DNA of 56,947 nucleotides from contig DXBY01000164.1 of NCBI GenBank assembly GCA_019116305.1, forward strand, positions 1 to 56,947, read 5' to 3'. Shown here in pieces: positions 6,779 through 24,406 of the stretch; positions within the stretch are counted from its first letter, which is position 1; the number at the start of each line of letters is the position of its first letter. The notes under the pieces were generated by a model. The model worked only from the letters and a program-made list of their open reading frames with translations. It searched no databases and was not told the DNA's origin. The position numbers were made by a program, and so were the translations under genes. The DNA comes from Candidatus Ruania gallistercoris. Lineage in GTDB: Bacteria > Actinomycetota > Actinomycetes > Actinomycetales > Beutenbergiaceae.

Positions 6779-6827
6779 GCAGCGAACCTGGCCGGGCCGG
6801 TCGCGGAGGTCGTCGCCACCCCACGGC

Positions 6828-6869
6828 CTCGACCGCGAGCGCGTGCTTGCGTGCGCGCTCGCGGTCGAG
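6828..6869. terminator. Strong hairpin downstream of GH140-like gene
   Basis: CTCGACCGCGAGCGCG (6828-6843) and CGCGCTCGCGGTCGAG (6854-6869): perfect 16-bp stem, 10-nt loop. Confidence 0.75.
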
Positions 6870-7002
6870 AACACTGAACGCCGTCGCACCCGCCCGCTCA
6901 GACCGTTCCACCCCCCCCCTACCGCTGACGTCCTGACCGGGCACCAGGAGCAGCCCGCCGACAACTGCGGGCGATCGGTGCGCCGGTGGAGCAGGAGGTT
7001 TC

Positions 7003-7521
7003 GTGAACAGGGACGAGGACGCAGCGCTGGAGGATGTCGCCATCGCCCGCGCATTGCGCGGGCACACCCGCACCCTGCTGCTGATGTGCGCTGCGTGCGC
7101 CGTGCTGGCCCTGCTCGGCGCCGGAGCCCTGAGCATGGCCGGGCAGTACCGCTCCGATGTGCGGATCGTGGCCGGGCTGTCCCTGCTCGCCGGCGCCCAG
7201 CTGCTCGCGATCACCGCCGCCGCGATCGCCGGCATGGGCTGGCTGACGATCGTGCGTGGGGTGGGCGAACCAGGCAGCCGGAGCAGCCAGGACGCCGCCC
7301 GCCGCGAGCTCCCGCAACGAGAGGTCGCCCGCACCGCCCGGCGGCTGGCCGTGCTGCTGCGCCTGGTCATCGCACTGGCGGTCGTGGGCGTGACCGTCTG
7401 GGCGATCGTGGACATCGCTGCCGTGATCGGGGCCGCGGTCGGCGCCGTGCTGCTGCTGCAGCTCGCAGTGGTGCTCGCGATCGTGCGGGTGAACGTCCTG
7501 CTCCGGCCCCGCCTGCCCTGA
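7003..7521 (+). CDS. Small multi-TM hypothetical membrane protein
   Basis: Hydrophobic segments LLLMCAACAVLALLGAGALSMAG, LSLLAGAQLLAITAAAIAGMGW, LLRLVIALAVVGVTVWAIVDIAAVIGAAVGAVLLLQLAVVLAIV; GTG start preceded by aggagg. Confidence 0.75.
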   Translation: MNRDEDAALEDVAIARALRGHTRTLLLMCAACAVLALLGAGALSMAGQYRSDVRIVAGLSLLAGAQLLAITAAAIAGMGWLTIVRGVGEPGSRSSQDAARRELPQREVARTARRLAVLLRLVIALAVVGVTVWAIVDIAAVIGAAVGAVLLLQLAVVLAIVRVNVLLRPRLP

Positions 7522-7542
7522 GGCCGGCAGGCCGGCCAGAGC

Positions 7543-8067
7543 TCAGTCCAGACGGCGCAGCATCCGCGTGTTGCCCAACGTGTTCGGTTTCACCCGAGCC
7601 AGGTCGAGGAACTCGGCGATCCCATCGTCCCGGGAGAGCAACAGCTCCAGGTAGACCTCGCGGTCCACCACGTCACCCTCGATCGGTGTGAATCCGTGAC
7701 CGGTGAAGAAGTCGACCTCGAAGGTCAGGCAGAACACCTGGGTCAGCCCGTAGGCACGGGCACGGTCGAGCAGCGCCTCGAGCAGCTCGTGCCCCACTCC
7801 GGTACCCCGCCGATCCGGCCGGACGGCGAGCGTGCGCACCTCCCCGAGGTCTTCCCACATCACGTGCAGGGCACCGCACCCGATCACCTCACCGGTCACC
7901 GGCTCCTCGGCCACCAGGAACTCCGGGACGGACTCGAAGTAGCCGACCAGGTCCTTGGCCAGCAGGATGCGGTCCTCGGCGTAGGGGTCGACGATCGTGC
8001 GGATCGTGCGCGCGTCTACGGGCAGTGCGGGCCGGATCACCGGCCGGGGCGGATCGGCAGCAGTCAC
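7543..8067 (-). CDS. Amino-acid N-acetyltransferase (GNAT, ArgA-like)
   Basis: GNAT motif VRTLAVRPDRRGTGVGHELLEALLDRARAYG; FCLTFEVDFFTGHGF; PNTLGNTRML at the C-term. Confidence 0.8.
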   Translation of the reverse strand: MTAADPPRPVIRPALPVDARTIRTIVDPYAEDRILLAKDLVGYFESVPEFLVAEEPVTGEVIGCGALHVMWEDLGEVRTLAVRPDRRGTGVGHELLEALLDRARAYGLTQVFCLTFEVDFFTGHGFTPIEGDVVDREVYLELLLSRDDGIAEFLDLARVKPNTLGNTRMLRRLD

Positions 8068-8071
8068 CTGC

Positions 8072-9037
8072 TCAGCCTGCCACGGTCTCCGGGTTCAGAC
8101 GTTCCAACAGCAGCCGCGCCGTGGTCTCGTCGGTGACCAGGTCCGTGGCCACCCGGGCCCGCAACGCGCCGAGCAGGGCAGGGACCTTCGCCGCTCCCAC
8201 GCCCACGCAGACGCGCCGACCCAGCGTGCGCAGCTCGTGCGGCGTGGGGCCGGTCGCCCGGGTGTTGATGGCGATGTCCCGGTAGGTGCCGTCCTCCCGC
8301 AGGAAGACCGTGCACACGTCCCCGACCACCCGGTCCGCGGCCAGCTCATTCATCTCCGCATCATCGAGATACCCCGCGTTGTACACGTGCGAGGGCACAT
8401 CGGCGGCGAGTGCGCCGACCCCGAACAGCGCGAGGTCCACCCGCCGCTGCACCGCCAGCACCCTGCGGATGCTGCGTTCGCGCCACATCGCCTCCTTGGT
8501 CGCGGCGAAGTCGAAGAACGCGGGAACCGGGAACAGGTACGGCGTGGAGTCGAACACGGTGGCGATGGTGGAGACCAGATCGCCGGCGTAGGTCACGCCA
8601 CCGGCATAGGTGTTCGCGGCGCCGTTCAGCTGCACCACGATGCTGCCCCGGGCAGGGCTTGGGCTCAGGTGCCGGGTGATCGCGGTCACCGTGGTCCCCC
8701 ACGCCACGCCGATCACCATGTCCGGGCGCACCCACTCGGTGACCAGACCCGCCGCCACCATCGCCACCTGCTCCAGCCGCTGCAGCTCGCTGGCACGTTC
8801 GCGCACCGGCACCACGTGCGCCTGGATACCGAAGGTCGCGGCCAGCCGGTGCCCGAGGTCTGCGCCGGTCCCGCTGGGGCGCCGCAGCGAGATGCGCACG
8901 AGGCCCTCGTCCCGGGCCGCCTTGATCAGGCGGGACACCGTGGACCGGGATACCCCGAGCGTCCCGGCGATGACCTCCATCGTCTGGTCCTGGAGGTAGT
9001 ACATCGTCGCAGCCCGGTACGCCTCGTCCTCACGCAC
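8072..9037 (-). CDS. SorC/DeoR-type sugar-binding transcriptional regulator
   Basis: HTH (MEVIAGTLGVSRSTVSRLIKAARDEGLVRI) and SorC effector-domain motifs (GVAWGTTVTAI, LNGAANTYAG, GVGA). Start at GTG (VREDEAYRAA). Confidence 0.85.
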   Translation of the reverse strand: MREDEAYRAATMYYLQDQTMEVIAGTLGVSRSTVSRLIKAARDEGLVRISLRRPSGTGADLGHRLAATFGIQAHVVPVRERASELQRLEQVAMVAAGLVTEWVRPDMVIGVAWGTTVTAITRHLSPSPARGSIVVQLNGAANTYAGGVTYAGDLVSTIATVFDSTPYLFPVPAFFDFAATKEAMWRERSIRRVLAVQRRVDLALFGVGALAADVPSHVYNAGYLDDAEMNELAADRVVGDVCTVFLREDGTYRDIAINTRATGPTPHELRTLGRRVCVGVGAAKVPALLGALRARVATDLVTDETTARLLLERLNPETVAG

Positions 9038-9062
9038 TCGTTCATCCTTTCCGCGCCCGCCA

Positions 9063-9098
9063 TGCACGTTCGTGCACGATGGTTGCGCACTCGTGCGC
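9063..9098. promoter_or_regulatory. Two tandem palindromic sites between SorC regulator and glpK (candidate operators)
   Basis: TGCACGttCGTGCA (9063-9076) and GCGCACtcGTGCGC (9085-9098), both perfect 6+2+6 palindromes, 22 bp start-to-start. Confidence 0.6.
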
Positions 9099-9245
9099 CG
9101 GGGGCAACTATGACCATCAGGCGACCGTGCAACCACACCGACGTGCCGGAGCGGGGTTCGCTACCGAGGGCGTCGGGAGGAAGCGACGGGTCGTGAGGAA
9201 GCGTCCAGCAACTCCGCCGCCGCGGAGCCCTAGGAAAGGAACGCC

Positions 9246-10763
9246 ATGCCTGACTACGTACTCGCCATCGACCAGGGCACCACGAGCTCCCGGGCGATCA
9301 TCTTCAACCACTCCGGCCAGATCGTGGAGAGCGGCCAGATCGAGCACGAGCAGATCTTCCCCAGGGCCGGCTGGGTGGAGCACGACCCGTTGGAGATCTG
9401 GCGGAACACCCGCGAGGTCGTGGGCCTGGCGCTCGCCCGCGCGAGCCTGAGCAAGTCCGACATCGCCGCCGTGGGCATCACCAATCAGCGGGAGACCACG
9501 GTGGTGTGGGACAAGGACACCGGCGAACCGGTCTACAACGCGATCGTCTGGCAGGACACCCGGACCCAGAAGATCGTCGACGAGCTGGGCGGAGAGCAGG
9601 GCGCGGACAAGTACAAGGCCACCGTCGGGCTGCCGCTGGCCACCTACTTCTCCGGTCCGAAGATCCGCTGGATCTTGGAGAACGTCGAAGGTGCGCGCGC
9701 CAAGGCCGAGGCCGGGGACCTGCTGTTCGGCAACACCGACGCCTGGGTGCTGTGGAACATGACCGGGGGAACCAACGGCGGTGTGCACGTGACCGACGTG
9801 ACGAACGCCTCCCGCACCATGCTGATGGACCTGAAGTCGCTGCAGTGGGACCCGGACATCGCCGCGGACATGGGCATCCCGATGTCGATGCTGCCGGAGA
9901 TCCGCTCCTCCTCCGAGGTCTACGGCAAGGGCCGCGAGGGCGGGATGGTCCCGGGTGTGCCGATCGCCGGGATCCTCGGCGACCAGCAGGCCGCCACCTT
10001 CGGTCAGGCCTGTTTCGAGGTCGGGATGGCCAAGAACACCTACGGCACCGGCAACTTCATGCTGATCAACACCGGTGAGGAGGCGATCCCGTCCGAGAAC
10101 GGGCTGCTCACCACCCTCGCCTACAAGCTCGGCGACCAGAAGCCGATCTACGCCCTGGAGGGCTCGATCGCGGTGACCGGGTCGCTGGTGCAGTGGCTGC
10201 GCGACAACCTGGGCCTGATCAGCGACGCTCCGCAGATCGAGGCGCTGGCCAAGACGGTGGAGGACAACGGGGGCGCCTACTTCGTGCCGGCGTTCTCCGG
10301 CCTGTTCGCCCCGTACTGGCGATCGGACGCCCGCGGCGCTCTGGTCGGCCTGACCCGGTTCGTCAACAAGGGGCACATCGCGCGCGCCACCCTGGAGGCG
10401 ACTGCCTTCCAGACTCGTGAAGTGGTGGATGCGATGAACGCCGACTCCGGGGTCGACCTCACCGAGCTGAAGGTGGATGGCGGGATGGTCGCCAACGAGC
10501 TGCTGATGCAGTTCCAGGCGGACATCCTCGGCGTGGATGTGATCCGCCCGCAGGTCGCCGAGACCACCGCGCTCGGTGCCGCCTACGCCGCGGGCATCGC
10601 CGTCGGCTTCTGGTCCGGGGAGCAGGATGTGATCGACAACTGGGCCGAGGACAAGCGCTGGACGCCGCAGCTGGACGCCGAGGAGCGCGAACGCCTGCAC
10701 CGGAACTGGAAGAAGGCCGTGACCAAGACCTTCGACTGGGTGGATGAGGACACGCCGGACTGA
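9246..10763 (+). CDS. glpK: Glycerol kinase
   Basis: Near-canonical GlpK sequence ([86 protein letters not shown]). Confidence 0.97.
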
Positions 10764-11868: not shown

Positions 11869-12072
11869 GCCGGGTCAGCCGCCGATGCTCGGGCGGGAGC
11901 CACCGGCACCTCCGACCGCCGAGCCCATGCCGCCCGATGCCCGATGCCCGCTGCCCGTGCCGCACTTCGCCCGCCAGGTACGTGCCACACTAAGCCCGCT
12001 GGGGCGATACCGCGGAGCACTCCTGACCGTGCTACGTATCGCTTGAATGGATTCAACGCAGGAGGAGGGGCG

Positions 12073-12163
12073 GGAAACGGTTTCTAGCTGGCCGACCGCT
12101 CGAGGGCACTGCTCAGTTGACATCGCTGTCAACGAGTCACTAGTTTATTAGAAATCGGTTTCT
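12073..12163. promoter_or_regulatory. Promoter/LacI-type operator region upstream of Gfo/Idh-GH43-LacI fusion operon
   Basis: GGAAACGGTTTCT (12073-12085), TTGACA (12117-12122) within palindrome GTTGACAtcgcTGTCAAC (12116-12133), -10-like TAGTTT (12141-12146), and AGAAATCGGTTTCT (12150-12163). Confidence 0.6.
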
Positions 12164-12181
12164 CGCCATTGCTCGCCGACT

Positions 12182-13612
12182 ATGAACAGGAAGCCCATGT
12201 CTGATCGTCCTGCCCGCCGCTACGCCTTGATCGGAACCGGCGGGCGGTCGCGGATGTACATCGACGCGCTCACCTCCAGCCATGCCGACCTCGGCGAGAT
12301 CGTCGCCTTCCTGGACCCGAACGAGGCGCGGATGGCCTACTACGACCGCTACCTCGCCGAGCGGGACCGCACCGCACCGCCGCACTTCGGGCCGGAGTCC
12401 TTCGAGCAGATGCTCAGCTCCACCCGCCCGGACGTGCTGATCGTCACCAGCAAGGACTCCACCCACGCCGATCACATCGTGGCCGGCCTGGACCACGGAC
12501 TCGACGTGATCACCGAGAAGCCGATGACCATCGACGTGCCCAGCCTGGAACGGATCGTCCGCGCCGCGCAGGCCTCCACCGGCACCCTGACCGTCACCTT
12601 CAACTACCGGTACTCCCCGCGGAACTCGGAGGTTCGCCGGCTGATCGCCGAGGGCGCGATCGGCACGGTCACCTCGGTCCATTTCGAGTGGTGCCTGGAC
12701 ACGGTGCACGGCGCCGACTACTTCCGCCGCTGGCACCGGGAGAAGGACAGCTCCGGCGGCCTCGCCGTGCACAAGTCCACCCACCACTTCGATCTGGTGA
12801 ACTGGTGGCTGGACGATGTCCCGGCCACGGTGTTCGCTCTCGGCGGGCTGCGCTTCTACGGGGCGGAGAACGCCACCGCCCGCGGCCTGCCGCCGCGCCC
12901 GGCGCTGGGCCGGGACCTCGTCGCCGCCGGGGACCCGTTCGCCCTGGACCTGGCCGCCGATCCGCAGCTGAAGGGACTGTTCCTGGACGCCGAGCACGTG
13001 GACGGCTACCACCGGGACCAGGACGTCTTCGGCTCGGGTATCACGATCGAGGACAACCTCTCGGTCACCGTGGGCTACCAGGGCGGGGCCGCGATGTCCT
13101 ACTCGCTGAACGCGCACTCCCCCTGGGAGGGCTACCGGGTGGCGTTCAACGGCACCGAGGGCCGGTTGGAGCTGGACGTGGTCGAACGCGGAGCGGTCAG
13201 TAGCGAACGCACCACCAGCGGCCTGGGCGCCGGCGGCAAGGACCGGCCCGTGCTCGACCCCAGCGCCACCGAGGCCGAGCGCACCGGGCAACAGCTGCGA
13301 CCGCACGGTTCCCGGCTGATCCTGCAGCGGTTGTGGTCCCAGCCGGAGGAGGTGGAGATCCCCGAGGGTGCCGGCTCGCACGGCGGTGGGGACGTGATGC
13401 TCCTCGATGACGTCTTCCGTGGCCCCGCTCCGGACCCGCTGGGCCGCCAGGCCGGCTACCGCGACGGCGTCCGGTCGGTGTTGATCGGCGCCGCCGTCAA
13501 CGATTCGCTCGCCTCCGCCCGCGCGGTACACCTGGCCGACTACGGCGATCTGCTGCACGCCGCGGTGCTCGAGGCTGAGCCCACCGATTCACCAGCCGGC
13601 ACCGGCAGGTGA
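12182..13612 (+). CDS. Gfo/Idh/MocA family oxidoreductase
   Basis: N-terminal Rossmann region (RYALIGTGGRSRMYIDAL), DVITEKPMTIDVPSLERIV, VTFNYRYSPRNSEVRRLI, GGLAVHKSTHHFDLVNWWL. Confidence 0.88.
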   Translation: MNRKPMSDRPARRYALIGTGGRSRMYIDALTSSHADLGEIVAFLDPNEARMAYYDRYLAERDRTAPPHFGPESFEQMLSSTRPDVLIVTSKDSTHADHIVAGLDHGLDVITEKPMTIDVPSLERIVRAAQASTGTLTVTFNYRYSPRNSEVRRLIAEGAIGTVTSVHFEWCLDTVHGADYFRRWHREKDSSGGLAVHKSTHHFDLVNWWLDDVPATVFALGGLRFYGAENATARGLPPRPALGRDLVAAGDPFALDLAADPQLKGLFLDAEHVDGYHRDQDVFGSGITIEDNLSVTVGYQGGAAMSYSLNAHSPWEGYRVAFNGTEGRLELDVVERGAVSSERTTSGLGAGGKDRPVLDPSATEAERTGQQLRPHGSRLILQRLWSQPEEVEIPEGAGSHGGGDVMLLDDVFRGPAPDPLGRQAGYRDGVRSVLIGAAVNDSLASARAVHLADYGDLLHAAVLEAEPTDSPAGTGR

Positions 13613-13639: not shown

Positions 13640-15205
13640 ATGGCGCACCTTCCTCCCCCAATCCGCACCCCCCGCCCAGGCCGGTACCGCAACCCGGTGC
13701 TGGACGAAGACTGGCCCGACCCGGATGTGATCGCCTTCGGCGACGAGTACCTGATGGTCGCCTCCAGCTTCAACCGGGCCCCGGGGCTGCCGGTGCTCCG
13801 CTCAGCGGACCTGGTGGCCTGGCAGATCGCCGGCCACGCGCTGGCGGCGGTGCCACCCGCTGATCACTTCGCCCTGCCCCGGCACGGTGGCGGCGTGTGG
13901 GCCCCCTCGATCCGCGCCCGCGACGGTGTGCTGTACATCGTCTGGCCCGACCCGGACCACGGCCTGTACGTCTCCACCGCCACGGACCCGGCCGGTCCGT
14001 GGACGCCGCCGCACCTGCTGCTGGCCGGGCAGGGGCTGATCGACCCGTGCCCGCTGTGGGACACCGACGGCCGCACCTACCTGGTGCACGGCTGGGCGGG
14101 GAGCCGGTCCGGGATGAAGAACCTGCTCACCGCCTACGAGGTCAGCCCGGACCTGCGGTCGGTCATCGCGCCAGGGCGCACGATCATCGACGGCGCAGCG
14201 TTACCGGGCTATCGCACGCTCGAGGGGCCCAAGTGGTACCGGCGGGACGGTTGGTACTGGATCTTCGCTCCGGCGGGAGGTGTGGCGACCGGATGGCAGG
14301 CCGCGTTCCGGTCCCGCTCGGTGTACGGGCCGTACGAAGGTCGCACCGTGCTCACCCAGGGTGACTCCCCGGTGAACGGCCCGCACCAGGGCGCCTGGGT
14401 CACCGACCCCGGCGGGGCCGACTGGTTCGTGCACTTCCAGGATCGCGGCGCCTACGGCCGGGTCACCCACCTGCAACCGATGCACTGGGACGGCGAGGGC
14501 TGGCCGGTCCTGGGCGAGGGCGGAGAACCGGTGCTGGAGCACGCCGCCCCGGTGACCAGCACCCGCCAGGAGATGCGCGCCGTCGACGGCAGTGACGACT
14601 TCACCGGGCCGCTGAACCCGAAGTGGCACTGGCAGGCCAACCCCGATCCGGACTGGTACGCCCGCACCGACCGGCAGCTGGTGCTGGCTGCGGTGGGGAA
14701 CGACCTGGGTGATCTGCGCCAGCTGCCGCAGGTGCTCAGCCAGCAGCTCCCCGGTCTGGCGTGCACCTACCGGACCAGCCTGACCCTCGATGCGGGCGCC
14801 GGCCCGGCCCGCGCCGGGCTGGTGCTGCTCGGCCAGGAGTACGTCTGGATCGGGGTGGAGGCCGGCGACGGCGGGACTCACCTGGTCTGCCGACGTTCCG
14901 GTCGGGACGACAGCGCCGATCAGCGCCGGGTGGAGGTGACGCTCATCACCCGGCCGGTGCCGGCCGGTGCCACCGTGCAGCTCCGGCTGGAGAGTGACGG
15001 CGCCGGTCGCGTGCGGCTGGCCTGGGCCACCGGCGCTGAGGACTGGCACGTGGTGCCGCAGGACTTCACCCCGGTCGCCGGTCACTGGATCGGCGCCGAG
15101 GTGGGTCTGTTCGCCGCGGCACCACCCGGCACCGGGAACGGCCCGCCCGCGCGGTACGGTGCCTTCGAGATGACCAGCACCGAGTCGGTCAGGGTGGAGG
15201 GATGA
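13640..15205 (+). CDS. Glycoside hydrolase family 43 protein with C-terminal beta-sandwich domain
   Basis: GRYRNPVLDEDWPDPDVIAFGDEYLMVASSF, GGVWAPSIRARDGVLYIVWPDPD, LIDPCPLWDTDGRTYLVHGWAGSRSG, TLEGPKWYRRDGWYWIFAPAGG, NGPHQGAWVTDPGG are GH43 five-blade propeller motifs; no signal peptide. Confidence 0.87.
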   Translation: MAHLPPPIRTPRPGRYRNPVLDEDWPDPDVIAFGDEYLMVASSFNRAPGLPVLRSADLVAWQIAGHALAAVPPADHFALPRHGGGVWAPSIRARDGVLYIVWPDPDHGLYVSTATDPAGPWTPPHLLLAGQGLIDPCPLWDTDGRTYLVHGWAGSRSGMKNLLTAYEVSPDLRSVIAPGRTIIDGAALPGYRTLEGPKWYRRDGWYWIFAPAGGVATGWQAAFRSRSVYGPYEGRTVLTQGDSPVNGPHQGAWVTDPGGADWFVHFQDRGAYGRVTHLQPMHWDGEGWPVLGEGGEPVLEHAAPVTSTRQEMRAVDGSDDFTGPLNPKWHWQANPDPDWYARTDRQLVLAAVGNDLGDLRQLPQVLSQQLPGLACTYRTSLTLDAGAGPARAGLVLLGQEYVWIGVEAGDGGTHLVCRRSGRDDSADQRRVEVTLITRPVPAGATVQLRLESDGAGRVRLAWATGAEDWHVVPQDFTPVAGHWIGAEVGLFAAAPPGTGNGPPARYGAFEMTSTESVRVEG

Positions 15206-17094
15206 TGAGCACCACCGGCGTGGCCACCATCGCCGAGGTGGCGCATGCGGCCGGGGTCTCCCGCGCCACCGTCTCCCGGGTGATGAACGGGCGCTCCACC
15301 GTGGACCCGGAGATGGCTGCCCGGGTACGCAAGGCCGCCCGGGAGCTGAACTACTCCCCCAGCACTGTCGCCCGCAGCCTGTCCCTGGGCCGCACCCAGA
15401 CCGTGGCGCTGCTCGTCCCGGACCTGGGCAACCCGATGTTCCAGCAGGTGCTGCGCGGGGCGAACCAGGCCGCCACCCGCGCCGGCTACCGCATCCTGGT
15501 GGCGGACAGCATCGAGGAACCCGAACGCGAGGCCGAGCTGGCCATCGAGGCCCGCCGGCGGTGCGATGCATTGATCCTGTGCTCCCCGCGGATGCCGGAA
15601 GCACAGCTGAGCGAGGTGCTGACCGCTACCTCCCCGGTGGTGCTGGTCAACCGGGAGCCGCACGGCAACGATGTGCCCGCACTGGCGGTGGACTATGCCG
15701 GCGGCATCCGCACTCTCGCCGAGCACCTGATCGGTCTGGGCCACCAGCGGTTCATCTACCTGGCCGGACCGGAGACGTCCGCCTCGAACACTGCCAGGCT
15801 GGAGGGGCTGGCCCTGCTGCAGGCGGCCCACCCGGAGATCAGCATCCAGCACAGTCCCTGTGGCTCGATGATCGAGGACGGGTACGCCGCCTTGGAGGCG
15901 GTGCTGAACTCCCAGGCGACGGCGGTCCTCGCCTTCAACGACCTGGTCGCCTTCGGGCTGCTCGGCAAGCTGAACGAGACCGGGGTGGGCGTCCCGCGCG
16001 GGATCTCGGTGGCCGGGTTCGACGACATCGCCTTCGCCAAGTACGCCACCCCGTCCCTGACCACGATGTCGGTACCGCAGATGGACCTGGGCCGCCATGC
16101 CTGGGAGCAACTGCACCAGCTGCTGGTCGGTGAGGCGGAGAGCACGTCGCTGTTCTTCCGGCCGCGACTGATCGAACGGGTCAGCACCGGCCCGGCCCCG
16201 GTGCTGCCGACCACGGCACCGGCCGCACCCGAGCGCGGCAGCCTGCCGCTGTGGTCCCGCGACGACGATGCCGGTGTGCTCCGCGCCGGCGGGTCCGCAC
16301 TCGCCCGCTACGAGCGCCACCCGGCGATGCCGGACGTGCACGCACCGCGGCCGTACCTGCACCCGGTGCACACCTGGAACGGCGCCCCGCTCACCGAGAT
16401 CTCACCGCTGGACCACCGGCACCAGTACGGGGTCTCGTTCGCCGTGGCGCAGGTGAACGGCTCCTCGTTCTGGGGTGGACGCACCTACGTGCGCGATGCC
16501 GGACCCACCCTGCTGCAGATCCACGGCACCCAGGTCAGCCACGACATGACCCTGGTGGGCCCCGCCCTGACCGAACAGCTCACCTGGTACGGGCACGACG
16601 GCGCCGAGCTGCTCACCGAACGGCGCCGTCTGGTCGCCCGGACACTGCCCGACCAGAACGGCTGGGAGCTGACCTGGCAGTCCTTGCTGCACGCCGGCAC
16701 CGGAGAGGTGACGATCGACTCCCCGGCCACCCAGGGCCGGACCGGCGCCGGTTACGGCGGGATCTTCTGGCGCTTCCCGGATGACGGTGAAGCAGCGATC
16801 ACCTGCGCTGACGGCACCGGCGAGGAGGTCGCCAACGGCTCCACCTCACCGTGGCTGCTGCTCTCCCGGGCCGGTGAGCGGCCGTGGACGGCGCTGCTGC
16901 TGCAGGAGGGTGAGGTGCGCCCGTGGTTCGTGCGCTCCACCGACTATCTCGGCGCCGGGCCGGCGCTGGCCTGGTCGCAGTCACTGCACATCCCGGCCGG
17001 GGACACTCTGGAGGTGGGGCTGCGGGCGGTGCTGCTCGACGGCGTCGTGGCAGCGGATCAGATCGCGGATCTGATCGAGTCGACCACCGAGTAG
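15202..17094 (+). CDS. LacI-family transcriptional regulator fused to C-terminal PmoA-like (DUF6807/PF14100-type) domain
   Basis: LacI HTH (TIAEVAHAAGVSRATVSRVMNGRSTVDPE...LNYSPSTVARSL) and periplasmic-binding-like core to about residue 340; then RPYLHPVHTWNGAPLTEISPLDHRHQYGVSFAVAQVNGSSFWGGRTYV...GYGGIFWRF...WTALLLQEG resembling PmoA/DUF6807 proteins. 630 aa in a single frame. Confidence 0.82.
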   Translation: MMSTTGVATIAEVAHAAGVSRATVSRVMNGRSTVDPEMAARVRKAARELNYSPSTVARSLSLGRTQTVALLVPDLGNPMFQQVLRGANQAATRAGYRILVADSIEEPEREAELAIEARRRCDALILCSPRMPEAQLSEVLTATSPVVLVNREPHGNDVPALAVDYAGGIRTLAEHLIGLGHQRFIYLAGPETSASNTARLEGLALLQAAHPEISIQHSPCGSMIEDGYAALEAVLNSQATAVLAFNDLVAFGLLGKLNETGVGVPRGISVAGFDDIAFAKYATPSLTTMSVPQMDLGRHAWEQLHQLLVGEAESTSLFFRPRLIERVSTGPAPVLPTTAPAAPERGSLPLWSRDDDAGVLRAGGSALARYERHPAMPDVHAPRPYLHPVHTWNGAPLTEISPLDHRHQYGVSFAVAQVNGSSFWGGRTYVRDAGPTLLQIHGTQVSHDMTLVGPALTEQLTWYGHDGAELLTERRRLVARTLPDQNGWELTWQSLLHAGTGEVTIDSPATQGRTGAGYGGIFWRFPDDGEAAITCADGTGEEVANGSTSPWLLLSRAGERPWTALLLQEGEVRPWFVRSTDYLGAGPALAWSQSLHIPAGDTLEVGLRAVLLDGVVAADQIADLIESTTE

Positions 17095-17106: not shown

Positions 17107-18036
17107 ATGACGGCTGTGCTGACCGCGCTGGGCACGATGACGCTCATCGCAGTGGCCGGCTGGCTGTTGGCGACCACGAGGGTGCTCGGCCCGGAGGCGC
17201 CCAAGGTGCTCGCCCGGGTGGTGTTCACCCTGTCCACGCCCAGCCTGCTGGTCACCACGATCGGCTCCGCCCACCTGGACCTGCTGCTCACCCCGGCGGC
17301 GGTGAGCACCTGGGTGAGCACGCTGGTGGTGGCGGGGATCGCGATCGCGGTGTTCGCACTGCTGCGCGCCGACCGGCCCACTGCCACCATCGGCACCCTC
17401 TCGGCCAGCTACCTGAACGCGGGCAACCTGGGCATCCCGGTGGCGGTGTACGTGCTCGGCGATGCGCTCGCGGTGGTGCCCACCATGCTGCTGCAGCTGC
17501 TGTTGCTCGCCCCGGTGGCCTTCGCCGTGGGGGACGCCCGCCCCGGGCGCCGGCGGGGTGACGCGGTGCTGCGCGCGCTGCGCAGCCCGCTGACCATCGC
17601 CGCACTGCTCGGCCTGCTGCTCGCCCTGACCGGATGGCAGCTGCCGGTGGTGCTCGACCAGCCGCTGCACGCCCTGGCCGCCACCGCCGCGCCGTTGGCC
17701 CTGCTCACCCTGGGGATGTCGCTGGTGCGCTCCGCCCCGGCCCCGGGGATGCCGCGACCGTCGGTGGACCGCCGACACTGGTACGGCGTACTGACCGCCA
17801 CTGTGCTGCGTACGCTGGTGCACCCGGCCCTGGCCTATCTGGTGGCAGAACTGCTGGGCGTGCCAGCAGAGGCGAGGTTCGCCGTCGTGCTGATGGCTGC
17901 GCTCCCGACTGCCCAGAACGTGCTGGTCTATGCGATGCAGTTCGACGCCGGCCAACGCCTGGCCCGGGACACCCAGGTGATCACCACGTTCGCCTCCCTG
18001 CCGCTGATGGTGGCCGTCGTGGCGCTGCTGCACTGA
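17107..18036 (+). CDS. AEC (auxin efflux carrier) family transporter
   Basis: About 10 hydrophobic segments; LARVVFTLSTPSLLVTTI, YLNAGNLGIPVAVYVLGD, PLHALAATAAPLALLTLGMSL, LPTAQNVLVYAMQF. Confidence 0.85.
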   Translation: MTAVLTALGTMTLIAVAGWLLATTRVLGPEAPKVLARVVFTLSTPSLLVTTIGSAHLDLLLTPAAVSTWVSTLVVAGIAIAVFALLRADRPTATIGTLSASYLNAGNLGIPVAVYVLGDALAVVPTMLLQLLLLAPVAFAVGDARPGRRRGDAVLRALRSPLTIAALLGLLLALTGWQLPVVLDQPLHALAATAAPLALLTLGMSLVRSAPAPGMPRPSVDRRHWYGVLTATVLRTLVHPALAYLVAELLGVPAEARFAVVLMAALPTAQNVLVYAMQFDAGQRLARDTQVITTFASLPLMVAVVALLH

Positions 18037-18037
18037 C

Positions 18038-18964
18038 TCAGCCCTTCACCGAGCCGATCAGCGCACCCTTGACGAAGTAGCGCTGGATGAACGGGTAGAC
18101 GATCAGCATCGGCAGGGTGGCCACCGCGATCACCGCCATCTTCACCGATTGCGCCGGCGGGACCACCTCCACCACGGAGGCGTCCGCGTTCAGTCCGCTG
18201 GCCACGATCACGATCTGGCGCAGCAGCACCTGGATCGGCCAGAGTGTGGAGTCGTTGATGAACAGGATCGCCCACATGTAGGTGTTCCAGTACGCGACCG
18301 CGTAGAACAGCCCGATCGTGGCGATCGAGGCGACCGAGAGCGGGAGCACGATCCGGAGGAAGACCCCCAGCTCGGAGCAGCCGTCGATCCGGGCGGACTC
18401 CTCCAGGCTGTCCGGGATGCCCTGGAAGAAGCTGCGCATGATCACGAAGTTGAACGCGTTCACCGTGAACGGCAGGATCAGCGACCAGATCGAGTCCAGC
18501 AGGCCGAGCCCGTTGACCACGATGAACAGCGGGATCATGCCGCCGCTGAACAACATGGTGAAGACCACCAGGAAGTTGATCACCCGGCGCCCGCGCAGGT
18601 AGCGCTTGCCCAGCGCATAGGCCATCAGAGAGGTAACCAGCAGGCTGAGGAACGTGCCGACCACGGTGACGAACATCGACACCCCCATCGCCCGGAAGAT
18701 GGTGGGGGTGGAGAGCACGTACCGGTAGGCGTCCAGGGTGAACTCCCGCGGGATGATCACGAACGCCCGGGTGGCCAGCTCGCCCGGGTTGGCCAGCGAG
18801 CTGCCGATCACATGCAGGAACGGCAGCAGGCAGATCAGCGCGAAGCCGGTCAGCACCACACCGTTGACCAGCTGGAACACGCGACGCCCGGCAGTGGGCT
18901 TGCGCAGCCGGTCCGGCCGGTAGGTCAACTTCTTCGCAGTGCTGGTTGCGGGGCTGGCAGTCAT
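18038..18964 (-). CDS. Carbohydrate ABC transporter permease (YtcP/LplC-like, MalG-type)
   Basis: VLTGFALICLLPFLHVIGSSLANP..., EESARIDGCSELGVFLRIVLPLSVASIATIGLFYAVAYWNTY (EAA loop), YPFIQRYFVKGALIGSVKG C-term. Confidence 0.9.
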   Translation of the reverse strand: MTASPATSTAKKLTYRPDRLRKPTAGRRVFQLVNGVVLTGFALICLLPFLHVIGSSLANPGELATRAFVIIPREFTLDAYRYVLSTPTIFRAMGVSMFVTVVGTFLSLLVTSLMAYALGKRYLRGRRVINFLVVFTMLFSGGMIPLFIVVNGLGLLDSIWSLILPFTVNAFNFVIMRSFFQGIPDSLEESARIDGCSELGVFLRIVLPLSVASIATIGLFYAVAYWNTYMWAILFINDSTLWPIQVLLRQIVIVASGLNADASVVEVVPPAQSVKMAVIAVATLPMLIVYPFIQRYFVKGALIGSVKG

Positions 18965-19428
18965 GAGGAACTCCCGTCCCGGACGGGGCGCGCGGCGAAC
19001 AGGCCGGCGCCGAGGAAGAAGAAGAACGCGATCGGGTAGGCGATCAGCTGGCTGCCGAGCAGGCACACCACACCGGCGGCGAACAACCACCAACCTGGAG
19101 CCTTCCGCCACGGCCGGCTCCGGGTGAGCATCACCGCCACCGCGGCCAGGGCGAGCACCAGCAACAGGGTGAGGGCGAACCAGGCGCTGAGCGTGCGGCC
19201 AGCCTCGAACGCCTCCGCCGGAGAGAGCTGGTCCGCCCCGCCGAGCAGCACCGGCCGGACCACCTCCTCGAAGGAGGCCTCGTCCAGCCGGTTCACCACC
19301 AGGGCGAAGCCGCCGAGGAACACCAGCGCCAGGCCCGCCCCGAGCCCGGTCAGCCACAGCTCGGCGGTGCGCCGGATCGCCGGAGGTGGGGCGGCCTCGT
19401 CCGGATCCGCTCCCCGGTGGTCAGTCAT
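18961..19428 (-). CDS. Small multi-TM hypothetical membrane protein
   Basis: LWLTGLGAGLALVFLGGFALVVNRLDE, LSAWFALTLLLVLALAAVAVMLTRS, WWLFAAGVVCLLGSQLIAYPIAFFFFLGAGLFAARP; ends overlap neighbouring genes in the operon. Confidence 0.75.
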   Translation of the reverse strand: MTDHRGADPDEAAPPPAIRRTAELWLTGLGAGLALVFLGGFALVVNRLDEASFEEVVRPVLLGGADQLSPAEAFEAGRTLSAWFALTLLLVLALAAVAVMLTRSRPWRKAPGWWLFAAGVVCLLGSQLIAYPIAFFFFLGAGLFAARPVRDGSSS

Positions 19429-20707
19429 CGCGCGCATCATCACCCCGGACCTCCACCCGGACCGCCTGGCAGTCCTGGCTGCTCACTACCGGCCCACGCG
19501 CACCCGCGACCCGCACGGCCGTCACCTCGCTCTGCCGCAGGTGCGCGAGCTGCAGACCGGCCTGGGTCACCGGCTCCAACCCGAGGGCCATATCCGGTGC
19601 CGCCGGCCGTGGCTCGGCGGCGAAGGAGACCGCGACGTCGACCACGGTCAGATCCCTCAGCGGTGCCTCGGGCAGACCGGAGAGGTAGCCGGCGCAGGCG
19701 TGGGTGTTCCGGGCGCTCAGGTGGGACAGGTGTAGCCGCCGGATCTGTGGGGTGCCGGCGTCGACCGGTCGGGCGGTCCGGTCGCCCACCTGCGGTGCTT
19801 TGCCGTCCGGGCCGCAGAAGTAGAACGGGTTCACCGCGATCGGGGTACCGACGCTGTCCATGATCACGTTCGTGACCCGGATGTCCTCCACCGTTCCCCC
19901 GCGGCCGCGCCGGGTCTTGATCCGGATACCGCGATCGGTGCCGGCGAAGAGGCAGTTGCTGATCACCACGTTGCGGATCCCGCCGCTCATCTCGCTGCCG
20001 AGCACCACAGCGCCGTGACCGTGGACCATCGTGCAGTTGGTGATCGCGATGTTCTCGCACGCCGCGGGCTCCCCGGCACGTTCGGTGCCGGCCTTGATCG
20101 CGATGCAGTCGTCCCCGACGTCGATGTGGCAGTCGCTGATCCGCACGTTCCGGCTGGACTCGGGGTTGATGCCGTCGGTGTTCGGCGAGTCGGCCGGGTT
20201 GACGATCTGGACGTTGGTGATCGTCACGTTCTCGCAGAGCAGCGGGTGGATCGTCCAGCTGGGGGAATTGCGCAGGGTGATGTCCCGGATGGTCACTCGC
20301 TCGCACTCGTGCAGTCCGATCAACGTGGGCCGCGGACGGCTCAGGCCAGCGCCCTGATCACGCGAGCGTTCCCACCACGCGTGACCACCGCCGTCGACCG
20401 TGCCGAATCCGGTGATCGACACGTTCCGGGCACCGCGGGCGTACAGGCCAGGGCGATGCACCTCCGCCGGCGCACCCTCCCATCGAGCGGCGATGGGCGG
20501 ATACAGCTCCGGCTGCGGCACCAGCTGCAGGGTGGCACCAGCCTCCAGGTGCAGCTCGATATCGGAGTACACCTGCAGCGAACCGGTGCGGTGCACCCCG
20601 GCGGGGACCACCACGCGGCCGCCGCCAGCCGCGGCTGTCTCGTCGATCGCTTGCTGCAGACCGGCAGTTGCTGGTGCGAGAGCGGAGACCTTTTCGAGAG
20701 TGGGCAC
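19421..20707 (-). CDS. Glycoside hydrolase family 28 protein (polygalacturonase-like)
   Basis: Pectin-lyase-fold motifs NPADSPNTDGINPESSRNVRISDCHIDVGDDCIAIKAGTE, GHGAVVLGSEMSGGIRNVVISNC, GIRIKTRRGRGGTVEDIRVTNVIMD; no signal peptide. Confidence 0.93.
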   Translation of the reverse strand: MPTLEKVSALAPATAGLQQAIDETAAAGGGRVVVPAGVHRTGSLQVYSDIELHLEAGATLQLVPQPELYPPIAARWEGAPAEVHRPGLYARGARNVSITGFGTVDGGGHAWWERSRDQGAGLSRPRPTLIGLHECERVTIRDITLRNSPSWTIHPLLCENVTITNVQIVNPADSPNTDGINPESSRNVRISDCHIDVGDDCIAIKAGTERAGEPAACENIAITNCTMVHGHGAVVLGSEMSGGIRNVVISNCLFAGTDRGIRIKTRRGRGGTVEDIRVTNVIMDSVGTPIAVNPFYFCGPDGKAPQVGDRTARPVDAGTPQIRRLHLSHLSARNTHACAGYLSGLPEAPLRDLTVVDVAVSFAAEPRPAAPDMALGLEPVTQAGLQLAHLRQSEVTAVRVAGARGPVVSSQDCQAVRVEVRGDDARDD

Positions 20708-20773: not shown

Positions 20774-22288
20774 TCAACCGTTGACGCTGTTGTAGGACTC
20801 GGTGAACTCGGCGATCACGTCGTCCAGCCCCTGGCTGCGGGTGGACTCGATCGCCTCCTCGTACCCGGCCATGTCCAGGTCACCGACCATGTACCGGTTG
20901 AAGGCGTCCATCACGGTCTGGTCGATCGTGGACCACTGCTGGTCATAGGTCTCCGAGGACAGGGACTGCGCCGGGTTGGTGACCGCGAACTCGGCGTTCT
21001 CGGCCATCAGCTCGTCCGCCCGGTTCACATACTCGTTGTCCGAGGTGAAGATGATGACGTTGTCCGCGGGCCGGGAGCTGGCATAGGGCTGGACCTCCTG
21101 CTCCCACTCGGTCTGGTTGATCCGGGAGTAGACGCCCTCGCCGTCGACCTCGTAGTGCTCGCCCTCGATACCCTGGGTCATCAGGGTGAACGGCTCCTCG
21201 TCCAGCAGGCTGTCGATGAAGCCGAGCACCTCGAGCAGCTCCTCCTCGGTCTCCACGGTCTGGGTGTTGATCGCCAACCAGCCGCCCATCCCGCCGTTGG
21301 TGTCGGAGACGATCCGGCGCTCCACGTCGCCATAGGTCATGTCGTTGATCTGGGCCCACTCCATCGGGGTCTCCGGGTCGATGCTCTCCGCGAGCTCGAG
21401 ATAGCCGCGGGCCTCGAACAGCCCGGTGATCACGATGCCGCCCTCACCGCGGGCGATGGCATCGCGCTGGTTGTCCTTCTGCATGGTGATGAACTCCTGG
21501 TTCATCCAGCCGTTCTCGTACACCTCGCGGTACCAAGCCATCGCCTCCTTCCACTCCTCGGTGGTGAAGGCCGGCACCACGTTGCCCTGCTCGTCGAGCT
21601 GGAACCGGTCCCCGGCACCGAAGTACCCGGCGATGATCCGGAAGGAGAGGCTGTAGCTCTCCGCCCGCTCGATGAACCCGGTGGTGTCGTCCTGGCCGTT
21701 GCCGTCCGGGTCGTCCTCGGTGAAGGCGCGGGCCACCTCGGCAAGCTCGTCCAGGGTGTGCGGAGCCTCCAGGCCGAGGGCATCCAGCCAGTCCTGGCGC
21801 ACCAGGACGCCGTACCGGGCGATCGGCTTCTGGAACGGGATCCCGTAGAGGTGGCCGTCCAGCCGGGCAACGTCCAGCGTCGCCTGCGGGATCTGGGAGA
21901 GGTTGTCGAACTCGGACAGGTACGGTTCCACGTCCCAGAACATCCCCGACGTCAGCGCGTTGCGCACTGTGGTGGAGTCGATCTGGGTGAGCGAGGTGAT
22001 GTCCGCCAGCGTGCCGGAGGCGAGCGCGGCGTTCACCTTCTCCTCCTTGGATGCATCCGGGACCCACTGCATCTCGAAATCGGTACCGGTGTAGTCCACG
22101 AGGGCCTCGTGGATCGGTCCGTTCGGGTCCGGGGTGGTGGGCGTGTGCAGCATCGACATCCAGGTGATCGGGCCGTCGTCACCGCCGCCTCCTCCCTCGG
22201 TGCCGCCATCGCTCCCGCAGGCTGTCAGGGCCAGAGCTGCGGCGAGGACGGCTGCGGTGCCGCCGGCCAGTCTCTTGTGAGTGTTCAT
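20774..22288 (-). CDS. ABC transporter extracellular solute-binding protein (lipoprotein, LipO/YtcQ-type)
   Basis: Lipoprotein signal (MNTHKRLAGGTAAVLAAALALTACGSDGG); family-1-like SBP motifs; adjacent to permease genes. Confidence 0.9.
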   Translation of the reverse strand: MNTHKRLAGGTAAVLAAALALTACGSDGGTEGGGGGDDGPITWMSMLHTPTTPDPNGPIHEALVDYTGTDFEMQWVPDASKEEKVNAALASGTLADITSLTQIDSTTVRNALTSGMFWDVEPYLSEFDNLSQIPQATLDVARLDGHLYGIPFQKPIARYGVLVRQDWLDALGLEAPHTLDELAEVARAFTEDDPDGNGQDDTTGFIERAESYSLSFRIIAGYFGAGDRFQLDEQGNVVPAFTTEEWKEAMAWYREVYENGWMNQEFITMQKDNQRDAIARGEGGIVITGLFEARGYLELAESIDPETPMEWAQINDMTYGDVERRIVSDTNGGMGGWLAINTQTVETEEELLEVLGFIDSLLDEEPFTLMTQGIEGEHYEVDGEGVYSRINQTEWEQEVQPYASSRPADNVIIFTSDNEYVNRADELMAENAEFAVTNPAQSLSSETYDQQWSTIDQTVMDAFNRYMVGDLDMAGYEEAIESTRSQGLDDVIAEFTESYNSVNG

Positions 22289-23034
22289 CGCGGGTTTCCT
22301 TTCTCCAGGTGCCGCTCCCAGTGCCCGGCAGGTCCGGGTGTGCGAGATGCGACCAGTGCGTCGTTGCGCTCGGATCGGGTAGGGGTCTGCTGCTGGGGCA
22401 GGGTCTCGGTGTGCGCCTCCGCTTCCGCCGCATCGTCCTCGGCCAGGCGGCGGAACACGCTGCGCACGATCAGACCGACCACAGCCATCGGCAGGGCGAT
22501 ACCGACCAGCGGCAGCAACGGCAGGGCGAAGCGGTACATCAGCCAGTACAGGGCGGCCACTGCTGTGGTCCCGATGATCGTCCAGTGCAGCGAGCCCACC
22601 CCGAGCAGCAGCGCTGCGGTGAGCGTGGACCGGATCGTGTTCACCTCCAGCGCGGCGAGCACGAAGTACACGTAAGCGGTGATCACCGCCAGCAGCACCA
22701 GCGCCAGCAGGTTCGCGACCCGGAGGTACCAGCTCGGCGCACTCAGCACGTTCACCCCGATCACCGCTCCGAGGCCGAGCAGCACCCAGCTGACCAGCAC
22801 CGGACGCCAGCCCAGCTCGGTGGCATAGCGCCGGAAGGTGGCGGTCACCGGCGGCAGCTCACCGAGGCGGAACCAGCGGTCGACGTATTTGGCGAACGCA
22901 TAGGTGGCCGGACCGGCACCGACGATGCCGAGGCCTACGACCGTGGTGGCGATCCAGAGCAGGTTCAACCAGAGCAGCCGGTAGAACCCGGACAGCAGGT
23001 GGTTCAGCCGAACCAGGCCTTCATAGGACAGCAT
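22285..23034 (-). CDS. YesL-like DUF624 membrane protein
   Basis: NHLLSGFYRLLWLNLLWIATTVVGLGIVGAGPATYAFAKYVDRW is DUF624/YesL-like; next to LplB/YtcP-type permeases. Confidence 0.8.
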   Translation of the reverse strand: MLSYEGLVRLNHLLSGFYRLLWLNLLWIATTVVGLGIVGAGPATYAFAKYVDRWFRLGELPPVTATFRRYATELGWRPVLVSWVLLGLGAVIGVNVLSAPSWYLRVANLLALVLLAVITAYVYFVLAALEVNTIRSTLTAALLLGVGSLHWTIIGTTAVAALYWLMYRFALPLLPLVGIALPMAVVGLIVRSVFRRLAEDDAAEAEAHTETLPQQQTPTRSERNDALVASRTPGPAGHWERHLEKGNPR

Positions 23035-23062
23035 GCCGAACACCTCCTCCGCCGCAGGCGGG

Positions 23063-24037
23063 TCAGTAGACGCCTTCTTCGCCGAACTTCTTCGCCATCC
23101 GGTTCGCGATGACCACCAGGAGCAGGCCCACCAGCCCCTTGAACATGCCCACTGCGGTGGCATAGCTGAGCTGCCCGTTCTGGATACCCGCGGTGTAGAC
23201 GTAGGTGTCGAAGATCTCCGCCACCTCCCGGTTCAGCGAGTTCAGCAGCAGGAACATGTGCTCGAAGCCGAGCTCGAGGAAGTCGCCGATGGCGAGGATG
23301 AACATCACCACGATCGTGGGCCGGATCGCCGGCAGGGTGATGTGCCAGGTCTGCCGCCAGCGCCCGGCCCCGTCCAGCTCAGCAGCCTCGTACAGGCTCA
23401 CATCCACCGCGGTGAGCGCCGCCAGGTAGACGATCGTGCCCCAGCCCGCGGACTTCCACACGTTCTGGAAGACATACATCGGACGCAACCACTCGGTATC
23501 AGTGAGGAAGGCGATCTCCTCGCCGCCGGCCCCGGCGATCAGGTTGTTCACCGCCCCGCCGTCGGTGGTGAGCAGCACGTAGAACAGGGAGACCACGATC
23601 ACCCAGGACATGAAGTGCGGCAGGTACACGATCGACTGCAGGGAACGCTTGAACACCCGGGACCGGATCTCGTTCAGCATCAACGCCAGGATGATCGGCA
23701 CCGGGAAGGAGAACACCAACAGCAGCAGGGACACGATCAACGTGTTCCGCAGCAGCATGAAGAAGGTGTCCTCGGTGAACAGCCGGACGAAGTGGTCGAA
23801 CCCCACCCACGGGCTCTCTGCCACACCGAGGAAGGGCATGTAGTCCTGGAAGGCGATCACCAGGCCGCCCATCGGCAGGTACTTGAAGAGCAGGAAGTAC
23901 GCGATCCCGGGAAGTGCCATCAGGTACAGCGTCCTGTGCCGCCAGATGGAGGGCTTGCGGCGCCTGGTCGGCGGCACCGAGGCCTCGTTCGGGGGCGGCG
24001 CTGCTCCGCGACGGCGGATGAGCGAAGGTGCGCTCAT
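23063..24037 (-). CDS. ABC transporter permease (LplB-like)
   Basis: LYLMALPGIAYFLLFKYLPMGGLVIAFQDYMPFLG, EAAELDGAGRWRQTWHITLPAIRPTIVVMFILAIG, NGQLSYATAVGMFKGLVGLLLVVIANRMAKKFGEEGVY. ATG at 24037 preferred over 24136. Confidence 0.9.
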   Translation of the reverse strand: MSAPSLIRRRGAAPPPNEASVPPTRRRKPSIWRHRTLYLMALPGIAYFLLFKYLPMGGLVIAFQDYMPFLGVAESPWVGFDHFVRLFTEDTFFMLLRNTLIVSLLLLVFSFPVPIILALMLNEIRSRVFKRSLQSIVYLPHFMSWVIVVSLFYVLLTTDGGAVNNLIAGAGGEEIAFLTDTEWLRPMYVFQNVWKSAGWGTIVYLAALTAVDVSLYEAAELDGAGRWRQTWHITLPAIRPTIVVMFILAIGDFLELGFEHMFLLLNSLNREVAEIFDTYVYTAGIQNGQLSYATAVGMFKGLVGLLLVVIANRMAKKFGEEGVY

Positions 24038-24120
24038 CGCGCCGTCACTCTCGCCGTTGTCGTCGCCTGCATTGGCGTGTCCTCGCTCTTCGTCGAGCTG
24101 GTCTGAACCAGCTACCGGTG

Positions 24121-24134
24121 GGAACCGGTTTCTC
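24121..24134. promoter_or_regulatory. LacI-type operator upstream of the ABC/GH28 operon
   Basis: GGAACCGGTTTCTC, matching AGAAATCGGTTTCT upstream of 12182; a second weaker site GAGACCGGTTACTC lies near 24269-24282. Confidence 0.6.
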
Positions 24135-24406
24135 AATGAAAGGAGACTACAACAGAGTCGAGGCAGTTAGCAACGGTCGGAGTCTTTCGACTGAAATGTA
24201 GGGATTTTCTCTGGAAGTGGCCAGACCGGCGGCATGATCGGTCAGGGGTGAACCGACACGAGAAACGGGAGACCGGTTACTCGCTAGATCGGGAGCATCG
24301 CCATCCACGCGCATGCCAGGTCCTGCCTCAGCAGCACAGCTGACTGTCGCTGCCCTGATGGTGGCCGCGGTGGCCCTGCTGCTGCCCTAAGTCCACGGCC
24401 GTGACC

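What the first reader, a model, noticed from the sequence alone, without database searches (positions are those of the whole stretch)
15202..17094. LacI repressor fused to a PmoA-like (DUF6807/PF14100-type) domain
Seen: one uninterrupted 630-aa frame with an ordinary LacI HTH and effector domain (to about residue 340) followed by about 280 aa resembling stand-alone PmoA/DUF6807 proteins (RPYLHPVHTWNG..DHRHQYGVSFAVAQVNGSSFWGGRTYV). Established: LacI repressors normally end after the effector domain; DUF6807 proteins are uncharacterised and often sit in glycan loci near Gfo/Idh oxidoreductases, as here. Inference: the extra domain may be an enzyme or carbohydrate sensor acting on the inducer, giving a repressor that could consume or discriminate its own ligand.
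Basis: partly seen in the sequence, partly recalled or inferred. Interest (0 to 1): 0.68.

Follow-up and report, generated by a model that had tools for sequence, protein, structure and literature searches.

The report
LacI repressor with enzyme-derived sugar tail
A bacterial gene switch that controls plant-sugar breakdown carries, as a permanent extra piece, a domain of unknown function derived from a sugar-pathway protein, and in this lineage the piece has lost a residue that every non-fused relative keeps, which suggests it was turned from an enzyme into a sensor.

Summary
Window 15202-17094 (+) is one 630-aa frame: LacI HTH (9-54), LacI effector core (173-329 and flanks), DUF6807/PF14100 (360-625, E 9e-58). 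It is not a frameshift or chimera. I found 49 distinct LacI-DUF6807 proteins in at least 7 actinobacterial families; their DUF6807 domains form one clade (SH-aLRT 92). DUF6807 is also fused to Gfo/Idh dehydrogenases and once to GH43. The LacI half looks fully functional. A palindromic operator (about GAGAAACCGGTTTCTC) flanks the operon's promoter, precedes the convergent GH28/ABC operon, and recurs across fusion loci. The motif D404-H405-x-x-H408, invariant in 101 aligned non-LacI DUF6807 domains, is broken in 17 of 49 LacI-fused ones (4 independent losses), including this protein (H408Q). In five same-genus genomes the orthologue at the same locus has lost the whole tail, along with the Gfo/Idh, GH43, ABC and GH28 genes, but keeps the operator. 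Best reading: a local repressor of a pectin/xylan-type locus whose tail is an enzyme-derived ligand-binding module, probably catalytically impaired here. No ligand, activity or fold is established.

The parts
15202..17094 (+). lacI-DUF6807 fusion gene, 630 aa
15226..15363 (+). LacI-type helix-turn-helix (residues 9-54); core V19-S20-x-x-T/S23-V24-S25-R26 and hinge A57/L60 conserved in 49 fusions
15397..16191 (+). LacI effector-binding core (residues 66-330); N150, R199, N246, D247, D274 invariant in 49 of 49 fusions
16192..16278 (+). linker (residues 331-359), Pro/Ala rich; 13-89 aa between domain hits in other fusions
16279..17076 (+). DUF6807 (PF14100) domain, residues 360-625
   Evidence: E 9.1e-58
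16411..16425 (+). D404-H405-R406-H407-Q408: site of the D-H-x-x-H motif; H408 replaced by Q here
12072..12087 (.). operator-like palindrome 1 (GGGAAACGGTTTCTAG), upstream side of the promoter
12117..12122 (+). TTGACA, probable -35 element, between the two operators; TTGACAT conserved in R. albidiflava (L031) and G021 (L133)
   Evidence: the strict scanner did not call it
12149..12164 (.). operator-like palindrome 2 (TAGAAATCGGTTTCTC), about 77 bp from operator 1
12182..13612 (+). Gfo/Idh/MocA oxidoreductase, first gene of the operon
13640..15205 (+). GH43 glycosidase with GH43_C2 domain; stop overlaps the fusion's start
17107..18036 (+). Mem_trans (auxin-efflux-carrier-type) transporter, last gene of the operon
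18038..18940 (-). ABC sugar permease (BPD_transp_1) of the convergent operon
19421..20707 (-). GH28 (polygalacturonase family)
20774..22288 (-). probable ABC substrate-binding lipoprotein (no Pfam match; position and sequence)
22285..23040 (-). DUF624 (YesL-like) membrane protein
23063..24055 (-). ABC sugar permease, first gene of the convergent operon
24119..24134 (.). operator-like palindrome 3 (TGGGAACCGGTTTCTC) in the promoter region of the ABC/GH28 operon
24267..24282 (.). operator-like palindrome 4 (GGGAGACCGGTTACTC), 148 bp further upstream; nearly the same spacing (149 bp) occurs in L031

Best explanation
The gene encodes a LacI-family repressor that binds GAGAAACCGGTTTCTC-like operators and controls its own operon (Gfo/Idh dehydrogenase, GH43, itself, an AEC-type transporter) and the convergent ABC-transporter/GH28 operon of a pectin/xylan-type utilisation locus. 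A sugar released or imported by the locus is expected to bind the ordinary LacI pocket and lift repression. The C-terminal DUF6807 domain was acquired once from a stand-alone, Gfo/Idh-associated sugar-pathway protein and works as a second ligand-binding module that senses an intermediate of the same pathway. In this lineage it has lost part of its ancestral active site (H408Q), so it senses rather than consumes, while the stand-alone paralogue elsewhere in the genome keeps the enzymatic role. Shown here: architecture, single origin, conserved operator-like sites, intact LacI residues, motif loss confined to LacI fusions, and secondary loss of the tail together with the catabolic genes. Inferred: repression and its relief, the nature of the ligand, that the motif is catalytic, and signalling from tail to LacI core.
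For: LacI half: complete HTH and hinge; N150, R199, N246, D247 and D274 invariant in 49/49. Operators: at up to 2 mismatches 17 sites in 50 fusion loci against 0 in Markov shuffles, often paired immediately upstream of the fusion gene; the window-type pattern occurs exactly twice in 4.37 Mb, at these two promoters. Tail ancestry: one clade of 49, next to stand-alone DHxHHxG proteins. Motif: D404/H405/H408 broken in 17/49 LacI-fused, 0/101 others; 4 changes on the tree, all in a clade holding 26% of the branch length (chance about 0.005); intact in the 42 further non-LacI domains read; intact in the 11 second, non-LacI DUF6807 domains recovered from genomes with a broken fusion and in the own-genome stand-alone copy. 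Not a dead relic: E473, R524, R578 and W424 invariant in all 150, purifying selection. Pathway link: DUF6807 also fused to Gfo/Idh and GH43; the own-genome stand-alone copy lies with an altronate/galactarate dehydratase and a Gfo/Idh, as in 14 relatives. Tail loss: unfused orthologues nest inside the fusion clade (100/100 set) at the same glpK-xylBA locus, without Gfo/Idh, GH43, ABC and GH28 but with the operator.
Against: No ligand or activity is known for any DUF6807 protein that I could find. The D-H-x-x-H motif is only presumed catalytic. Gln can sometimes replace His, and H407, kept here, might compensate. 32 of 49 fusions keep the motif, so loss of catalysis is not general. The tail can be lost while the regulator persists, so it is not essential to repression. 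The operator consensus was derived from the same loci, and genome-wide sites at 3 mismatches are hardly above the control.
Confidence: 0.5

Rival explanations
1. The tail is still an active enzyme: a bifunctional repressor-enzyme that converts the inducer or a pathway intermediate, so that it tunes or ends its own induction.
For: DUF6807 is also fused to clear enzymes (Gfo/Idh, GH43). Most conserved polar residues (H387, E473, R475, R513, R524, R578, D613) are kept in the window protein, and 32 of 49 fusions keep the whole D-H-x-x-H motif. A low-confidence model places the fold near galactose mutarotases and other sugar-active enzymes.
Against: H408, invariant in 101 non-LacI domains, is Gln here; D404 or H405 is also lost in other fusions. 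The same genome has an intact stand-alone paralogue. A repressor is normally present at too few copies for bulk metabolism (general knowledge).
Confidence: 0.22
2. The tail is a passive or structural extra (oligomerisation, stability), kept by history and drifting toward loss.
For: The motif decays repeatedly and the whole tail was deleted once with the operator kept. dN/dS of the tail is higher than that of the LacI half (0.115-0.27 against 0.07-0.15). Linker length varies from 13 to 89 aa. Paired operators 34, 46, 77 or 148 bp apart would suit a tetramer.
Against: It has persisted across at least 7 families with many invariant residues (E473, R524, R578, W424, G442). It disappeared together with the catabolic genes, which ties it to the pathway rather than to DNA binding.
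Confidence: 0.2
3. Artefact: frameshift, assembly chimera or two separately translated proteins.
For: Many family members encode DUF6807 as a separate gene; start-like codons exist at residues 334, 359, 376 and 379.
Against: 49 distinct open fusions from independent assemblies, co-diverging halves, purifying selection through the linker against close relatives, no internal Shine-Dalgarno-like sequence.
Confidence: 0.02

Closest known systems
LacI/GalR family repressors (PF00356 + PF13377)
   Same: Complete HTH, hinge helix, effector core with the sugar-contacting residues, palindromic operators with a central CG, autoregulated catabolic operon
   Different: Carries about 280 extra residues (DUF6807) after the effector core
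Stand-alone DUF6807 / 'PmoA-like' proteins (PF14100), e.g. the own-genome copy at C313:36305-37105
   Same: Same domain over its full length, 44-46% identity, same E/R/W framework residues
   Different: Fused to a regulator; D-H-x-x-H motif broken (H408Q); the stand-alone gene lies with an altronate/galactarate dehydratase and a Gfo/Idh
Gfo/Idh-DUF6807 fusions (e.g. L003/L110)
   Same: DUF6807 as the C-terminal domain of a fusion in a sugar locus
   Different: Partner is a dehydrogenase; motif (DHxWH or DHxHH) intact
BzdR (HTH + shikimate-kinase-like effector domain; PMC3602430)
   Same: Regulator whose sensing domain derives from an enzyme; that paper reports that loss of the enzymatic activity was essential to its regulatory role
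   Different: BzdR has no LacI core; there the enzyme-derived domain is the only effector domain, here it is a second one
Galactose mutarotase-like supersandwich proteins
   Same: Foldseek's best PDB hits for the tail model
   Different: No sequence-profile support (hhalign probability 2%); the model is weak in its N-terminal half

Membership tests
LacI family transcriptional regulator | N-terminal LacI HTH (PF00356) and Peripla_BP_3 effector core over the cut-offs | tested here: met
LacI family transcriptional regulator | Hinge and effector-pocket residues (A57, L60; R199, N246, D274) conserved | tested here: met
   49 of 49 fusions (correspondence with E. coli LacI residues from general knowledge)
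LacI family transcriptional regulator | Palindromic operator in the target promoters | tested here: met
   binding itself not testable here
LacI family transcriptional regulator | Usual domain end: protein stops after the effector core | tested here: not met
   this is the variation seen here, not a requirement that defines the family
DUF6807 (PF14100) | Full-length profile match over the gathering score | tested here: met
   positions 4-269 of 270, 196 bits against a cut-off of 27
Active form of DUF6807 as in the stand-alone proteins | D-H-x-x-H motif of all sampled non-LacI members | tested here: not met
   H408 is Q. Lowers the claim 'active like the stand-alone protein', not membership of PF14100
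Galactose mutarotase-like superfamily | Fold | tested here: inconclusive
   E 3e-4, prob 0.98, TM about 0.3; model pLDDT 64; no profile match
Particulate methane monooxygenase PmoA (old database name of PF14100) | Membrane methane monooxygenase subunit | not tested
   The name appears a misnomer from general knowledge; contexts seen here are sugar loci

The most novel reading that the evidence does not exclude
A two-input LacI repressor: the classical pocket reads one sugar, while a pseudo-enzyme domain taken from the pathway reads a second intermediate (for example a product of the neighbouring Gfo/Idh dehydrogenase), with an intact enzyme paralogue kept in the same genome. In fusions with an intact motif the same domain would instead be a repressor that processes its own signal.
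Probability: 0.35. Interest if true: 0.75.

Novelty: new variant of a known kind. Interest (0 to 1): 0.55.

Why it matters
DUF6807 has no known function. The fusions tie it to sugar sensing, and unfused orthologues at the same locus give a natural tail deletion, so its role becomes testable with paired proteins (fusion against truncated or naturally unfused orthologue; tail against intact stand-alone paralogue). It would also be a further case of an enzyme domain turning into a sensor, with intact, broken and deleted stages in living relatives.

Tried and rejected
Two proteins or a frameshift: rejected. High-GC 'long open frames' taken as fusions: rejected where Pfam showed only DUF6807. Solved-structure homologues by sequence: none. 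Profile link to aldose epimerases: not supported. Regulation in trans of the galacturonate operon (operator at C313:39588, 1 mismatch): weakened, because the operator is also present in relatives whose regulator at this locus has no tail and another LacI gene lies about 5.5 kb away. Strict sigma-70 scan: nothing called, although TTGACAT is conserved between the operators.

Full report
OBSERVATION. Window 15202-17094 (+) is one open frame of 630 aa. Pfam finds the LacI HTH at 9-54, the LacI-type effector core (PF00532 66-309, PF13377 173-329) and DUF6807/PF14100 at 360-625, E 9.1e-58. The start (ATGATG, preceded by GGTGGAGG) overlaps the stop of the GH43 gene, so translation is probably coupled; start-like codons near the junction lack such a sequence. 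Against G021, dN/dS is 0.07 for the LacI half, 0.14 for the linker and 0.115 for DUF6807; against R. albidiflava 0.15, 0.25 and 0.27.

HOW COMMON. PF14100 was searched in the family (24 genomes), order (396), class (395) and phylum (397), and the loci were classified with local profiles. There are 49 distinct LacI-DUF6807 proteins, from at least 7 families: the window's family (Ruaniaceae), five others of the same order, and Jiangellaceae (Phytoactinopolyspora). DUF6807 is also fused to Gfo/Idh dehydrogenases (22 in the first set, 8 more in the class survey) and once to GH43 (L164). On a tree of 150 DUF6807 domains the 49 LacI-fused ones lie on one side of one branch (SH-aLRT 92), next to stand-alone DHxHHxG proteins. 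The two halves diverge together (r 0.90).

THE LacI HALF WORKS ON PAPER. HTH core, hinge (A57, L60) and N150, R199, N246, D247, D274 are invariant or nearly so in all 49. Palindromes close to GAGAAACCGGTTTCTC lie upstream of the gfo-GH43-fusion-transporter operon (12072, 12149, 77 bp apart, with a conserved TTGACAT between them) and upstream of the convergent ABC/DUF624/GH28 operon (24119, 24267). In 50 fusion loci 17 sites lie within 2 mismatches of the consensus, none in shuffled sequence, often as pairs 34 or 46 bp apart directly before the fusion gene. The window-type pattern GRRAAHCGGTTYCYM occurs only twice in the 4.37-Mb genome, at these two promoters. Caveat: the consensus came from these same loci, and genome-wide sites at 3 mismatches are hardly more frequent than the control.

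THE TAIL. Framework residues E473, R524, R578, W424 and G442 are invariant in all 150 domains. D404, H405 and H408 of the motif P-x-D-H-x-[HW]-H-x-G are invariant in the 101 non-LacI domains and intact in 42 further ones, but lost in 17 of 49 LacI-fused: H408Q in 15 (three changes), D404 to V/L in 6 (two changes), H405R in 2 (one change); together four independent events, all in a clade that holds 26% of the tree length (chance about 0.005). The window protein reads DHRHQ. Where a second, non-LacI DUF6807 was recovered in a genome with a broken fusion, its D-H-H motif was intact (11 proteins), as is the own-genome copy L002. A model of the tail (pLDDT 64, pTM 0.68, N-terminal half mostly below 50) has galactose mutarotases, GH36/GH65 and PL17 proteins as its best PDB matches (E 3e-4, TM about 0.3); profile comparison with aldose epimerases gives no support. 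I treat this fold as a lead only. The motif itself lies in the badly modelled half, so its place in the fold is unknown.

A NATURAL DELETION. Five same-genus genomes (G015, G017, G018, G019, G020) have, at the same place between glpK and xylB/xylA, a LacI 70-77% identical to the window's LacI half that ends near residue 331 and is followed directly by the AEC-type transporter; the Gfo/Idh, GH43, ABC and GH28 genes are missing and the operator is kept about 60 bp upstream. On a LacI tree these five nest inside the fusion clade (Ruaniaceae set 100/100; sister to the window's clade 80/83), so the tail was lost, not late-gained, together with the catabolic genes. The LacI core therefore does not seem to need the tail to keep its operator, and the tail goes with the pathway.

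PATHWAY. The neighbourhood holds GH43, GH28, two ABC permeases, a probable binding protein and DUF624, with xylulokinase- and xylose-isomerase-like genes next to it. GH43, the fusion, GH28, the binding protein and DUF624 recur together in Phytoactinopolyspora. The own-genome stand-alone DUF6807 lies in an operon with an altronate/galactarate dehydratase and a Gfo/Idh, conserved in 14 relatives. I infer a pectin-type substrate, possibly a xylose-bearing galacturonan; this is inference.

MECHANISM AND RIVALS. Best reading (0.5): repressor with an enzyme-derived second ligand-binding module, catalytically impaired in this lineage. Rivals: still an enzyme (0.22), structural or fading extra (0.2). 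A precedent for an enzyme domain becoming a sensor after losing its activity is BzdR (PMC3602430). Literature on DUF6807 is essentially nil in the library searched.

VERDICT. Real, conserved, and not described in the literature I could search; a new variant of the LacI kind.

Noticed in passing
L164 (G065) 5980-8679 -: GH43 glycosidase fused to DUF6807 in one frame (899 aa); only one example seen.
   Followed up: partly
L003/L110 and about 29 further loci (e.g. L090-L109, L229, L238, L244-L246): Gfo/Idh dehydrogenase fused to DUF6807, widespread in Actinomycetota; suggests that the two act on one substrate in sequence.
   Followed up: partly
L249 (own genome C313:29000-45000), 6158-10600: Conserved operon altronate/galactarate dehydratase - DUF6807 - Gfo/Idh with a GAGAAACCGGTCTCTC palindrome upstream; a hint that stand-alone DUF6807 serves uronate catabolism.
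   Followed up: partly
L257-L260 (G008-G011): In the sister genus the same operon lacks a good copy of that palindrome (best 4 mismatches).
   Followed up: no
G017 and G019 (L153, L157 against L292, L294): These genomes hold both an unfused orthologue and a second LacI-DUF6807 fusion with D404 and H408 both lost.
   Followed up: no
window 18961-19443 -: Small membrane protein with only a sub-threshold DUF4064 match between GH28 and the permease; function unclear.
   Followed up: no
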